Source of the DNA: Geminicoccaceae bacterium
GTDB taxonomy: Bacteria > Pseudomonadota > Alphaproteobacteria > Geminicoccales > Geminicoccaceae
NCBI GenBank assembly: GCA_020446285.1
Contig: JAGREZ010000558.1
Span: 1 to 5,274, forward strand
Length of the DNA: 5,274 nt
Reading direction: 5' to 3'
In this document: positions 2,794 to 5,080 of the stretch, in pieces
Position numbering within the stretch: the stretch's first letter is position 1
Layout: each line of letters opens with the position of its first letter
The notes under the pieces: generated by a model
Told to the model about the DNA's origin: nothing
What the model saw: only the letters and a program-made list of their open reading frames with translations
Databases searched by the model: none
Translations under genes and position numbers: made by a program

Positions 2794-4188
2794 TCACATG
2801 TGGATGGGTTTTGCGAAAGCCGCGAGCGCCGCTTCCTTGACGGACTCCTCGAGGGTCGGATGCGCATGGCAGGTACGCGCGATATCCTCCGACGAGGCAC
2901 CATATTCCATCGCCAGAACCACCTCGCCGATCACCGTGCCGGCATCCGCGCCGATGATGTGGCAGCCGAGCACCCGGTCGGTCGAGGCATCGACGAGCAG
3001 CTTGACGAAACCGTCGGTCTGACCCGTGGCGCGGGCGCGGCTGTTGGCGAGGAAGGGAAACTTGCCGACCCTGTATTCGATGCCGGCCTCCTTGAGCTGT
3101 TCTTCCGTCCTGCCCACCGACGCCACTTCCGGTGCGGTGTAGATGACACCGGGAATGGCATCGTAATTGACATGCGGCTTCTGTCCGGCGAGCAGCTCGG
3201 CGACGGCCACGCCCTCCTCTTCGGCCTTGTGCGCCAGCATCGGACCGCGAACGACATCGCCGATGGCATGGATGCCCTCGACCGATGTCTCGAAATGGTC
3301 GCCCACCTCGATCATGCCGCGCCGGTCCGTGGCGATCCCGACATTGTCCAGACCGAGCCCCTCGGTGTAGGGGCGCCGGCCGATGGCCACCAGCACGGTG
3401 TCGCATTCGAGCGTCTCGGCATCGCCGCCGGCCGCAGGTTCGAGGCTGACCTTCAGCCGCTCGCCGGAATTGTCGATGGCCGCGACCTTCGTCGAGAGCC
3501 TGAACGTCATGCCCTGCTTGGTGAGGATGCGCTGAAGGTTCTTTGCAACCTCGGCATCCATGCCCGGTGTGATGTGGTCGAGAAATTCCACCACGGTCAC
3601 CTCGGAGCCGAGCCGTCCCCAGACCGAGCCGAGTTCGAGCCCGATCACCCCGGCGCCGACGACGACGAGATGACCCGGCACCGCATCGAGGTCGAGGGCC
3701 CCGGTCGACGACACCACGCGCTTCTCGTCGATCTCGACGCCCGGCAGCGGCGTACTCTCGGAACCGGTGGCGATCACGATCGAGCGGGCGGTAAGCTCCC
3801 TGTCGCCAGCCTTGACCTTGCCGGGGGCGATAATCGTGCCGGTCTCCCTGACATAGTCCACCTTGTTCTTCTTGAAGAGCCCCTCGATGCCCTTGGTCAG
3901 CCCTTCGACGACCTTGTCCTTGTTGTCCATCATCGCATCGAGATCGAGCGTCACCTCGCCGACGGAAATGCCGTGCGCGGCCATTTCGTGGCGGGCCTCG
4001 TGATAGAGATGCGAGGAATGCAGGAGCGCCTTGGACGGCATGCAGCCGACATTGAGGCAGGTTCCGCCGAGCGCGCCGCGCTTTTCGATGCAGGCTGTCT
4101 TCAGCCCCAGTTGTGCCGCCTTGATGGCGCAGACATAGCCTCCCGGCCCGCCGCCGATCACCACCAGATCGTATGTCCCCTCACTCAT
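2794..4188 (-). CDS. lpdA: Dihydrolipoyl dehydrogenase (E3 of 2-oxoacid dehydrogenase / glycine cleavage complexes)
   Basis: This FAD and NAD enzyme reoxidises the dihydrolipoyl groups of pyruvate, 2-oxoglutarate and branched-chain oxoacid dehydrogenases or of the glycine cleavage system. At 464 residues it is full length. The FAD-binding GGGPGG is at 12-17, and the redox-active disulfide is Cys44/Cys49 in GGTCLNVGC. The NAD-binding GAGVIG is at 178-183, and the second FAD motif is GIHAIGDV (305-312). The dimerisation domain ends with HAHPTLEE, where His443 and Glu448 form the catalytic dyad. These features separate it from glutathione reductase and mercuric reductase. The ATG at 4188 is chosen because [14 protein letters not shown] matches the family's usual start. 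An in-frame ATG at 4206 would add six residues, and the frame stays open further without homology. No oxoacid dehydrogenase genes lie upstream. Instead this gene leads an operon with an exported protein and an acyl-CoA dehydrogenase. Confidence 0.96.
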
Positions 4189-4292
4189 CACCCTGACCCC
4201 CGACATTTCCGTTCCGCTACTGCGAGCGAACCTAGCAGCGTGTTGATGAAATGCCGATAGCCGCGATGCGAGGCAAAGAGGCACGGGATTTC
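4189..4292. other. Intergenic leader region upstream of lpdA
   Basis: No gene is supported in this stretch, which separates lpdA (minus strand) from the small plus-strand unit. It should hold the lpdA promoter and leader, but no minus-strand pair of -35/-10 boxes stands out. The lpdA ribosome binding site is modest (AGGGTG directly before ATG, with a G-run just upstream). Confidence 0.4.
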
Positions 4293-4322
4293 TTGACATG
4301 GCGCGCCATGCGCGTGCACGAT
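4293..4322 (+). promoter_or_regulatory. Candidate sigma-70-type promoter of the 25-codon ORF
   Basis: TTGACA (4293-4298) is an exact -35 consensus. With an 18-bp spacer the -10 would be CACGAT (4317-4322), which matches TATAAT at only three positions (A2, A5, T6). Transcription would then begin near 4329, leaving a leader of about 30 nt before the ATG at 4361. The spacer is almost filled by a 14-bp palindrome (4297-4310), which suggests repressor control. The exact -35, the ribosome binding site and a terminator in line make a self-contained unit likely, but the weak -10 keeps confidence moderate. Confidence 0.45.
4297..4310. promoter_or_regulatory. 14-bp perfect palindrome, candidate operator
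   Basis: CATGGCGCGCCATG is its own reverse complement and overlaps the last bases of the TTGACA box and the promoter spacer. A second, 8-bp palindrome (CGTGCACG, 4313-4320) follows and reaches the candidate -10 box. A dimeric regulator bound here would block the plus-strand promoter. It could also affect lpdA, which diverges 109 bp away. Confidence 0.4.
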
Positions 4323-4343
4323 CAGGATGTGAGTGAAACCAGC

Positions 4344-4360
4344 AGAAAGGAGGTGATCCA
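4344..4360 (+). promoter_or_regulatory. Extreme Shine-Dalgarno element complementary to the 16S rRNA 3' end
   Basis: AGAAAGGAGGTGATCCA is the exact reverse complement of the usual 16S rRNA tail TGGATCACCTCCTTTCT. The complementarity is 17 nt, where ordinary genes pair over 4-7 nt. The GGAGG core ends 8 bases before the ATG at 4361, which is good initiation spacing. This fixes the start of the 25-codon ORF and implies either very strong initiation or a role as a binding site for the anti-Shine-Dalgarno sequence. Confidence 0.75.
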
Positions 4361-4438
4361 ATGTCGAGTGGTAAGGCTGTGCGTGTACGGCCCGAAGGTC
4401 AGGCGTCGGCAATGGAGCATCCTTCGTCGTCGATGTGA
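4361..4438 (+). CDS. Unrecognised 25-residue peptide gene with an exceptional ribosome binding site
   Basis: ATG at 4361 to TGA at 4436-4438 encodes 25 residues, beginning [13 protein letters not shown] and ending MEHPSSSM. I do not recognise it. The N-terminal half is basic (K5, R8, R10) and the C-terminal half is rich in Ser and Met. It has no Cys, Tyr, Trp or Phe, no hydrophobic segment, and no PqqA-like Glu/Tyr pair. Third positions are about 60% G/C, clearly lower than in the neighbouring enzymes. Support comes mainly from context: an exact TTGACA box, the 17-nt Shine-Dalgarno element directly before the ATG, and an intrinsic terminator 56 bp after the stop. It is the only plus-strand gene between two minus-strand blocks. 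It may be a leader or regulatory peptide, a precursor peptide, or a dual-function small RNA. A frame from GTG at 4329 also crosses this region but has no well-spaced ribosome binding site. Confidence 0.55.
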
Positions 4439-4447
4439 GACCTCGTT

Positions 4448-4484
4448 TCGATCGACAGGCTCGATCGACGGCTGAACACCAGCC
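4448..4484 (+). other. Two tandem hairpins after the 25-codon ORF
   Basis: TCGATCGA (4448-4455) and TCGATCGA (4461-4468) pair as an 8-bp stem around the loop CAGGC. They also form a 9-bp direct repeat TCGATCGAC with a period of 13. One base later GGCTG (4470-4474) pairs with CAGCC (4480-4484) around AACAC. With the terminator at 4494 this makes three consecutive stem-loops in the 3' region of the short transcript. That is unusual for a simple 3' untranslated region and fits a structured small RNA or a protein-binding site. Confidence 0.45.
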
Positions 4485-4493
4485 AGTTCCACG

Positions 4494-4526
4494 GAAGGGC
4501 CGCCCTGGTGCGGCCCTTCTTGTTTG
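4494..4526 (+). terminator. Intrinsic (Rho-independent) terminator of the small plus-strand unit
   Basis: GAAGGGCCGC (4494-4503) pairs perfectly with GCGGCCCTTC (4510-4519) around a 6-nt loop, and TTGTTTG follows at 4520-4526. This is a strong stem with a T-rich tail on the plus strand. On the minus strand no T-run follows, so any termination of the opposing gene, whose stop is 14 bp away, would rely on the stem alone. Confidence 0.85.
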
Positions 4527-4539
4527 TGCCCGCCCCGGT

Positions 4540-4914
4540 TCAGGCAGTCCCGTCCGACCTTGCCGCGAGCGCCGCCACATGCCTGAACACATCCTCCTGC
4601 CGCCGGGCGATTTCGGCTTCCGCCTGCGGCCCGGAGGATGGCCCGTCATAGCTTCCCTCCTCTCGCAGCGAGCGGAAATAGCCCTCGCCCGGCAATCCGT
4701 CGCTCTTGCGCACCACCAGACAGGCGATGTCCTCCGGCCCGCCACCGCCGGCCTCGATCCGCCGGCAGACCTCACCGATATCCCGGCAGATGGCCATCAC
4801 CGTGATGCGCGTCACCCGCCGCTCGAAGAAGGCGAGCAATTCGCCATAGGTCACACTCCGCCGCTCGAGCGCCCGCCGCAGCAGCACCTTTTCCAGCTGC
4901 TCGATATCGACCAC
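4540..4914 (-). CDS. Uncharacterised 124-residue protein (YGEL / GLPGEGYF motif family)
   Basis: I know no experimentally assigned function. The N-terminal half looks helical, with VTYGELL (21-27) and RVTRITVMAICRDIGEVCRRIEAGG (33-57 region). It is followed by a strand and loop, DIACLVVRKSDGLPGEGYF (62-80), then GSYDGP (87-92) and a C-terminal helix. Small alphaproteobacterial proteins with the pattern YGEL, then LVV..DGLPG.GFF, then YDGP exist and are, as I recall, sometimes labelled ribose-phosphate pyrophosphokinase. No phosphoribosyl-pyrophosphate-binding motif is visible here, so that label should not be used. The YGEL start recalls the winged-helix part of alkyltransferase-like proteins, but the PCHR active-site motif is absent, so this remains speculation. 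The start is GTG at 4914-4912, one base after the TGA of the upstream ORF, with GGGGCTGAG before it. Translation is probably coupled to that ORF. Confidence 0.8.
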   Translation of the reverse strand: MVDIEQLEKVLLRRALERRSVTYGELLAFFERRVTRITVMAICRDIGEVCRRIEAGGGGPEDIACLVVRKSDGLPGEGYFRSLREEGSYDGPSSGPQAEAEIARRQEDVFRHVAALAARSDGTA

Positions 4915-4915
4915 C

Positions 4916-5080
4916 TCAGCCCCTGCGCGCGGCGAAGATGAAGCCGAGGAAATTCATCAGGACCTGCGCCGCGAGAATGCTGGTAACGCCGCCCGGATCG
5001 TAGGCGGGCGGCCGTTTGCCGAAGGTGCAATGACCGACGAACGGCAGGTCCAGCCGTCCCCTCTCGTATCCGTGCGACAT
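4916..5080 (-). pseudogene. Agmatinase-family remnant: N- and C-terminal ends joined in frame, core missing
   Basis: This is a 54-residue ORF. Residues 1-24 (MSHGYERGRLDLPFVGHCTF then GKRP) resemble the start of alphaproteobacterial agmatinases (LPFVG..TFGK). Residues 25-54 (PAYDPGGVTSILAAQVLMN then FLGFIF) resemble the end of the same family, where a DP.G.TA.LAAQ helix follows the last strand. Ureohydrolases are typically about 300-350 residues. The Mn-binding motifs (GGDHS, DAHxD, DxD) are all absent, so it cannot be an active agmatinase. The junction lies near 5003-5014, in a GC-rich stretch coding KRPPA. Start choice: ATG at 5080 has GGAGG 5 nt upstream, while the ATG at 5098 has no such site. 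The intact frame, ribosome binding site and 1-nt spacing to the next gene suggest it is still translated and may serve to deliver ribosomes downstream. A novel small protein or an assembly deletion are alternatives. Confidence 0.6.

What the first reader, a model, noticed from the sequence alone, without database searches (positions are those of the whole stretch)
4344..4438. 25-codon ORF driven by a 17-nt complement of the 16S rRNA 3' end
The sequence directly before the ATG at 4361 (AGAAAGGAGGTGATCCA) is the exact reverse complement of the canonical 16S rRNA tail. A match this long by chance in 5 kb is very unlikely. It serves an unknown 25-residue peptide in its own transcription unit. Possible roles are an extremely well initiated regulatory or precursor peptide, an RNA that titrates the anti-Shine-Dalgarno sequence of 30S subunits, or a sensor of free ribosomes in which over-tight pairing slows initiation.
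Basis: partly seen in the sequence, partly recalled or inferred. Interest (0 to 1): 0.72.

Follow-up and report, generated by a model that had tools for sequence, protein, structure and literature searches.

The report
Ribosome-docking mini-gene RNA in alphaproteobacteria
Between two bacterial genes lies a predicted short RNA that carries a perfect docking sequence for the tail of the ribosome's RNA and a 25-codon reading frame whose start and stop, but not its protein sequence, are conserved across related bacteria, so being translated is likely its purpose rather than making a peptide.

Summary
AGAAAGGAGGTGATCCA (4344-4360) is an exact complement of the 16S tail of a family relative (the window's genome has no assembled 16S) and precedes a 25-codon ORF. 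It is not an orphan: 4337-4517 matches the Caulobacter sRNA family CC2171 (RF01867) end to end, E 1.1e-7, but at 42 bits, below Rfam's cut-off of 75, so it is a divergent relative. The element recurs across Alphaproteobacteria (pattern: 49 of 86 genomes of the class, own genome included, against 4 of 213 others). With the start base left free it is A, G or T in 79 of 79 hits. The frame stops 14-36 codons later in 175 of 180 copies (other frames 63 and 69; shuffles mean 61). In two well-sampled groups the stop position is nearly fixed while TAA, TAG and TGA interchange. Yet the peptide is unconstrained (pN/pS 0.86-1.5; lpdA 0.31-0.40). Codons 3-7 form a covarying helix with the segment just before the terminator. 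Best reading: a translated RNA whose act of translation, not its peptide, is selected; ribosome passage would open its fold. Ribosome sensor, 30S decoy and sponge remain untested. A Caulobacter ribosome-profiling study reported ncRNA regions as untranslated, which counts against this.

The parts
4293..4298 (+). candidate -35 hexamer TTGACA
   Evidence: Sequence. TTGAC occurs 20-80 nt upstream in 44 of 179 copies against about 8 in shuffles; 38 of the 48 occurrences lie 48-53 nt upstream of AAAGG; here it is at -53. The strict sigma-70 scan found no full promoter.
4317..4322 (+). weak candidate -10 (CACGAT); would put the RNA start near 4329-4332
   Evidence: Inference from spacing only; not reported.
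4337..4517 (+). RNA related to Rfam RF01867 (CC2171 sRNA), model positions 1-159/159
   Evidence: 42 bits, E 1.1e-7, cut-off 75 not reached
4344..4360 (+). extended Shine-Dalgarno complementary to the 16S tail; conserved core 4346-4359, mostly also G4345
   Evidence: predicted duplex -30.1 kcal/mol against -10.1 for a 7-nt SD
4361..4438 (+). 25-codon ORF, ATG...TGA
   Evidence: start and stop conserved across copies, peptide not
4368..4379 (+). 5' arm of long-range helix H1 (GTGG 4368-4371; GGCTG 4375-4379), codons 3-7
4414..4423 (+). GGAGCATCCT, local form of the clade motif GGAGCAGCCT; predicted apical hairpin
   Evidence: kept as nucleotides even in another frame (L016, and as GGAGCAACCT in L020); hairpin
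4480..4492 (+). 3' arm of H1 (CAGCC 4480-4484; CCAC 4489-4492), directly before the terminator
4493..4520 (+). intrinsic terminator, 11-bp stem then T-rich tail
   Evidence: 1 found; shuffles mean 0.2

Best explanation
The feature is a predicted stand-alone RNA of about 190 nt, a divergent relative of the CC2171 small RNA, whose Shine-Dalgarno sequence is the complete complement of a relative's 16S rRNA tail and whose 25-codon frame is likely translated, the act of translation rather than the peptide likely being what is selected. Shown by sequence comparison: the 14-15-nt core, the start codon, the stop position, the helix joining codons 3-7 to the segment before the terminator, and the terminator recur across the class; the amino-acid sequence does not. 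Inferred: 30S subunits with an accessible tail dock on the 5' end, initiate, and the elongating ribosome melts the long-range helix, so that occupancy by ribosomes sets the fold, lifetime or pairing activity of the RNA. What reads that state (mRNA targets, a nuclease, or the ribosome pool itself) is unknown and untested.
For: Rfam match end to end; 19 other loci, chosen because they hold the SD, match RF01867 at 27-54 bits, E 2e-8 to 0.07. CM search of 289 class genomes: 61 hit, 9 over the cut-off, own genome counted; own family: 19 of 31 at E<=0.05, 2 over the cut-off. A plain DNA search with 4290-4530 hit 15 of 96 genomes, own included; of the 14 others 13 hold the SD with its start codon and 1 (L019) does not. 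Pattern in 79 of 385 class genomes, reversed control 0; 49 of 86 in the class against 4 of 213 outside. Start-codon first base A 45, G 27, T 7, C 0 of 79, whereas the base before it is C in 6; of 22 changes in the 14-mer 16 keep G-U pairing with 16S, 1 is a breaking transition, 5 are breaking transversions. Stop at 14-36 codons in 175 of 180 against 63 and 69 in the other frames, shuffles mean 61, max 75; three stop codons at one position in the MSHGS group (29 of 31: TAA 15, TGA 13, TAG 1) and the VSR/VSG group (20 of 20: TAG 10, TGA 6, TAA 4). pN/pS 0.86-1.51 in six groups against 0.31-0.40 for lpdA; G+C by codon position flat in this ORF (0.58/0.62/0.58) against 0.67/0.44/0.83 in lpdA. Helix H1: -9.67 kcal/mol for true partners, -6.33 for swapped; 6 or more contiguous pairs in 73 of 143 against mean 20, max 33 in 200 permutations. 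In Azospirillum the same 5' module drives a 57-59-aa frame; pN/pS 0.57; it is annotated as a CDS in A. thermophilum.
Against: No transcript or ribosome footprint was available for this genome. [quoted passage not shown] its 133 ncRNAs include 27 found earlier by tiling array (passages); I did not see CC2171 named there. The SD is not predicted to be more open than with a shuffled downstream part (0.45 against 0.43 unpaired), and the six-sequence consensus fold even pairs part of the SD locally, so no exposure switch is shown. The covariation term of that six-sequence fold is slightly unfavourable overall (+0.81). The copies were gathered partly with SD patterns, so SD conservation is partly built in; 113 of the 180 came from a pattern that allowed only ATG or GTG. 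No strict sigma-70 promoter. In E. coli a 6-nt SD is more efficient than longer ones (abstract).
Confidence: 0.55

Rival explanations
1. It encodes a functional small peptide (regulatory or precursor).
For: Start, stop and length are conserved; in Azospirillum a longer frame from the same module shows purifying selection, pN/pS 0.57, and two family genomes carry a 57-aa frame that looks like a signal peptide by eye (L221, L223).
Against: pN/pS about 1 in the short-form groups and no third-position excess; beyond Met-Ser the peptides differ between the groups; flat codon-position G+C.
Confidence: 0.13
2. A 30S decoy: the RNA titrates free anti-Shine-Dalgarno tails and lowers initiation on other mRNAs.
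For: Complementarity to the tail, -30.1 kcal/mol; 16 of 22 changes keep pairing.
Against: A pure decoy needs no start codon, fixed stop or covarying helix; RNA abundance is unknown.
Confidence: 0.13
3. A base-pairing sRNA or sponge: the SD-like stretch pairs with CCUCC-bearing sRNAs (as CrfA does with SisA-D), the ORF being incidental.
For: CrfA, with a G/A-rich stem loop, sponges the alphaR8 sRNAs carrying UUUCCUCCCU in Caulobacter (section 7 read); most of the 14 Rhodobacterales-type copies aligned carry a CCACCUCCU-like stretch before the terminator (by eye).
Against: Conservation extends to GAUCC beyond the CCUCC match and ends at a start codon that takes A, G, T but not C; nearly fixed stop positions.
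Confidence: 0.12
4. A transcription attenuator with leader peptide for a downstream gene.
For: Short ORF followed by a terminator; a mechanical plus-strand ORF 4435-4941 exists.
Against: Codon-position G+C (0.71/0.50/0.82, as in lpdA) says that the minus-strand ORF 4540-4914 is the coding one; neighbours differ by eye in 16 loci.
Confidence: 0.03
5. Chance match in non-functional DNA.
For: None beyond the short length.
Against: 0.01 matches expected; class-wide recurrence.
Confidence: 0.01

Closest known systems
Rfam RF01867, Caulobacter sRNA CC2171
   Same: Same 5' block (CAACAAUCGAAAGGAGGUGAUCCAGUGUC), outer closing helix and terminator; full-length alignment.
   Different: Window copy scores 42 bits, cut-off 75. 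Rfam types it 'Gene; sRNA'; here start and stop conservation argues for translation.
Extended SD of rpsU in Flavobacterium (bS21 autoregulation)
   Same: One gene with an exceptionally strong pairing to the 16S tail, read by a ribosome subpopulation with a freed tail (passages with abstract).
   Different: There the product bS21 closes the loop; here no conserved product, another phylum, and no evidence of tail occlusion.
Extended SD sites of Staphylococcus aureus
   Same: Pairing continues from the canonical SD toward the start codon (passages).
   Different: There it serves ordinary genes and start selection; here it covers the whole tail in a tiny RNA.
CrfA sponge RNA of Caulobacter
   Same: G/A-rich, SD-like sequence in an alphaproteobacterial sRNA (section 7).
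   Different: CrfA's motif lies in a stem loop and pairs with sRNAs; here a conserved start codon follows.
rnTrpL/trpL dual-function attenuator RNA of Sinorhizobium
   Same: Short translated ORF on a small RNA (passages).
   Different: There the peptide is described as functional and the RNA is leaderless; here the peptide is not conserved and no operon follows.

Membership tests
RF01867 (CC2171) | Score at or above Rfam's gathering cut-off (75 bits) | tested here: not met
   42 bits; two other genomes of the same family reach 75.3 and 77.4
RF01867 (CC2171) | Full-length alignment to the model | tested here: met
   1-159/159, E 1.1e-7
RF01867 (CC2171) | 5' block with GAAAGGAGGUGAUCC + NUGUC | tested here: met
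RF01867 (CC2171) | Helix between the region after the start codon and the segment before the terminator, then terminator | tested here: met
RF01867 (CC2171) | Expressed as a small RNA | not testable with these tools
   No RNA data for this genome; a Mesorhizobium huakuii RF01867 match (MH_s33) is in that paper's sRNA table (passage)
Leader-peptide attenuator | Co-oriented regulated gene downstream of the terminator | tested here: not met
   Downstream coding strand is minus by codon-position G+C; diverse neighbours by eye
Conserved small protein | Purifying selection on amino acids (pN/pS well below 1) | tested here: not met
   0.86-1.51 in six short-form groups; met only in the long form of Azospirillum, 0.57
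rpsU-type ribosome-state sensor | Preferential initiation by ribosomes with a freed 16S tail | not testable with these tools
   Needs biochemistry

The most novel reading that the evidence does not exclude
A class-wide alphaproteobacterial RNA that reads out the state of the ribosome itself: only 30S subunits with a free, fully mature 3' tail dock on its full-tail complement, and passage through a sequence-neutral mini-ORF switches a closed RNA domain, so that translation without a product is the signal.
Probability: 0.25. Interest if true: 0.87.

Novelty: new variant of a known kind. Interest (0 to 1): 0.62.

Why it matters
If right, an RNA family filed as an sRNA is a translated RNA in much of Alphaproteobacteria, with a Shine-Dalgarno sequence that matches the whole 16S tail, in a class whose model Caulobacter starts 75.4% of its genes without one (passages). 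It gives a clean test case for translation as a regulatory act, for how ribosomes handle full-tail pairing, and for whether bacteria monitor the state of the 16S tail. It also shows how short ORFs with drifting peptides can escape conservation-based annotation.

Tried and rejected
Peptide conservation as the explanation: rejected by codon-position counts and pN/pS, with lpdA as positive control. Attenuator for a neighbour: rejected. SD sequestration or special exposure in the predicted fold: not shown. Rfam at default cut-off found nothing in the window or in 20 loci, L010 (the window's own) among them; only the E-value mode revealed CC2171. A natural covariation test, genomes with a GGATTACC tail (G128, G140, G180), is uninformative because the pattern found no copy in those genomes. 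Phage carriage: 6 viral contigs hold the pattern; by their ORFs five look like the bacterial short forms and one opens a 71-aa frame; not pursued. Literature: 'CC2171' with 'small RNA' and 'RF01867' each gave 2 papers, 'GGAGGUGAUCC' 1 (listing and start of abstract only); I saw no description of this element in the listings. The original CC2171 paper is not held, so what it says about the SD or an ORF is unknown to me; subscription journals are mostly not searched.

Full report
What is there. On the minus strand lies lpdA (dihydrolipoamide-dehydrogenase type; Pfam Pyr_redox_2 and dimerisation domain). Beyond the finding lies a minus-strand ORF at 4540-4914 without a Pfam match; its codon-position G+C (0.71/0.50/0.82) resembles lpdA (0.67/0.44/0.83), so the overlapping plus-strand ORF 4435-4941 is probably mechanical. 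Between them, on the plus strand, lie TTGACA (4293-4298), the 17-mer (4344-4360), a 25-codon ORF (4361-4438) and a terminator (4493-4520). The chance expectation for the 17-mer with up to three mismatches is 0.01 per window.

Identity. With default cut-offs Rfam is silent. In E-value mode 4337-4517 aligns to RF01867, the Caulobacter sRNA CC2171, from first to last model position with 42 bits and E 1.1e-7; the curated cut-off is 75. In one search the window's own locus and 19 others match the same model at 27-54 bits with E from 2.4e-8 to 0.07; the weakest of these are not significant alone. In a sample of 289 class genomes, own included, 61 match at E<=0.001, 9 over the cut-off; of 14 named control genomes only Caulobacter vibrioides does. 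In the window's own family 19 of 31 genomes, own included, match at E<=0.05, two over the cut-off; at that loose limit a Deinobacterium control also rings, so the weakest rows are unsafe. Of the 19 loci L206-L224 fetched there, 16 hold the exact 14-mer AAAGGAGGTGATCC and 3 do not. I therefore call the window's copy a divergent relative, not a member by Rfam's own rule.

Spread. A plain DNA search with 4290-4530 hits 15 of 96 genomes, own included; of the 14 others 13 hold the SD and start codon, 1 does not. A 22-letter pattern with up to one mismatch is found in 79 of 385 class genomes, the reversed control in none. In a phylum sample a 21-letter pattern is found in 49 of 86 genomes of the class, own included, and in 4 of 213 outside it (rows counted by hand).

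Pairing with 16S. No 16S was found in the window's genome; of 14 genomes of the family searched, 2 gave one. The relative G006 ends in GGATCACCTCCTTTCT followed by AACGG; where the mature end lies is recalled, not tested. The 17-mer is exactly complementary to it, predicted duplex -30.1 kcal/mol against -10.1 for AAGGAGG. Among the 79 pattern hits 57 have the exact 14-mer; of 22 changes 16 keep a G-U pair with 16S, 1 is a breaking transition and 5 are breaking transversions; counted once per family 12, 1 and 5. Seven of the 14 positions could wobble by a transition.

Is it translated? From the loci fetched I collected 180 distinct copies (14-mer with at most one mismatch, then NTG, about 200 nt of sequence behind it; identical copies dropped); 113 come from the scan whose pattern allowed only ATG or GTG, so the tally ATG 92, GTG 86, TTG 2 is biased. 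In the pattern, where that base was free, it is A 45, G 27, T 7, C 0, while the base just before it is C in 6 of 79. The frame closes after 14-36 codons in 175 of 180 copies, against 63 and 69 in the two other frames and a shuffle mean of 61, max 75 in 200 runs. I chose the range 14-36 after seeing the lengths. The five exceptions are four long forms that look like signal peptides by eye (L034, L135, L221, L223) and L148, probably a chance hit. Of 31 copies with the prefix MSHGS (mostly named Sphingomonadales) 29 stop after codon 18, with TAA 15, TGA 13, TAG 1; of 20 with VSR or VSG (mostly Rhodobacterales) all 20 do, with TAG 10, TGA 6, TAA 4. Interchange of all three stops at one place is hard to explain without termination there.

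Is the peptide the point? Differences are spread over codon positions (MSHGS set 1852/2037/1411; VSR set 981/867/746; 25-codon VS set 1306/1394/1165). pN/pS over pairs at most 35% diverged, first two codons left out, is 1.29, 0.98, 1.17, 1.51, 0.94 and 0.86 in six groups; they rest on 173, 163, 15, 10, 32 and 3 pairs. The same method gives 0.31-0.40 for lpdA among the window and three relatives. The ORF has no codon-position signal in G+C (0.58/0.62/0.58). RNA structure inside the ORF can depress synonymous change and push the ratio up, so a weak peptide constraint is not excluded. In Azospirillum the same 5' module drives 57-59 codons starting MSHGA or MSYGA; with an unnamed-genome copy of 56 codons (L034) seven copies give pN/pS 0.57. 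One is annotated as a CDS of the same extent (A. thermophilum); in A. ramasamyi, A. sp. B510 and A. brasilense no gene is listed there, and in A. oryzae one on the other strand (the plasmid gene table is incomplete). So the initiation module serves a real-looking coding frame in one lineage.

RNA architecture. Codons 3-7 can pair with the segment just before the terminator: CAUUGUC/GACAAUG, CAUGGUU/GACCAUG, GUGAG/CUCAC, in this window GUGG/CCAC plus GGCUG/CAGCC. My own terminator finder, without a control, placed a terminator in 169 of 180 copies (the 5 long forms were not tried). Over 158 distinct pairs the mean duplex energy is -9.67 kcal/mol for true partners and -6.33 for swapped ones (20 swaps, -6.54 to -6.02). 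Six or more contiguous pairs occur in 73 of 143 against a permutation mean of 20 and maximum of 33. These permutations do not correct for shared ancestry. RNAalifold on six close sequences, two of them the same locus, finds the helix on its own, with an A-U to G-C change on both sides in two of them; its overall covariation term is slightly unfavourable (+0.81) and it pairs three bases of the SD locally. The window RNA folds 5.2 SD below shuffles, terminator included. The clade motif GGAGCAGCCT is an apical hairpin and stays when out of frame (L016, L020), so it is likely an RNA motif. TTGAC is found upstream in 44 of 179 copies (8 expected), 38 of 48 occurrences 48-53 nt before the core, which would start the RNA shortly before the docking site.

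Mechanism. Committed reading: 30S subunits dock by full-tail pairing, initiate, and the elongating ribosome opens the closing helix; translation sets the state of the RNA, and the peptide is a by-product. Steps shown: recurrence of docking site, start, stop and helix, and drift of the peptide. Steps inferred: transcription in this genome, translation, helix opening, and any downstream effect. Precedents seen here: rpsU of Flavobacterium, where an exceptionally strong SD responds to ribosomes lacking bS21 (passages); S. aureus, where pairing extends toward the start codon (passages); E. coli, where six nucleotides beat longer SDs (abstract). The main published counter-evidence is the Caulobacter statement that ncRNA regions are not translated (passages). 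In Sinorhizobium 33% of 54 non-annotated translated sORFs lay on annotated sRNAs (passages), but I could not link any to this family.

Verdict. It is less of an orphan than thought, and its peptide matters less than thought, while the ribosome-facing interpretation gains weight.

Noticed in passing
window 4221-4287: Dispersed repeat: the search of the own genome with 4200-4560 gave 44 rows, the window itself and 43 others, all within this stretch; several are inverted arms 115-280 nt apart (37-nt arms, 95% complementary, in L006), like ends of a MITE or insertion sequence. No inverted partner was found at 4180-4560; it lies between lpdA and the RNA's candidate promoter.
   Followed up: partly
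window 4297-4310: Perfect 14-bp palindrome CATGGCGCGCCATG inside the candidate promoter spacer; not in the 60 nt upstream shown for relatives L012 and L013. Possible operator.
   Followed up: no
   Followed up: partly
L221, L223: Two genomes of the window's family carry the extended SD before a 57-aa signal-peptide-like frame starting VRISAF; homology to the Azospirillum form was not tested.
   Followed up: no
Rhodobacterales-type copies, e.g. L059, L080, L082: A CCACCUCCU- or CCUCCU-like stretch, itself anti-Shine-Dalgarno-like, sits before the terminator and could pair with the RNA's own SD (by eye).
   Followed up: no
L239-L244: Six IMG/VR contigs carry the pattern; five have ORFs like the bacterial short forms, L243 opens a 71-aa frame. 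Prophage flanks or contamination not checked.
   Followed up: no
G423, G652, G489, G518: The four genomes outside the class that match the pattern (GATCATATGTCGA twice, GATCTGATGTCTA twice) were not inspected; chance, coding genes or true copies.
   Followed up: no
window 4540-4914: A 124-aa minus-strand ORF with coding-like codon-position G+C but no Pfam match, and no match in the 179 loci searched.
   Followed up: partly
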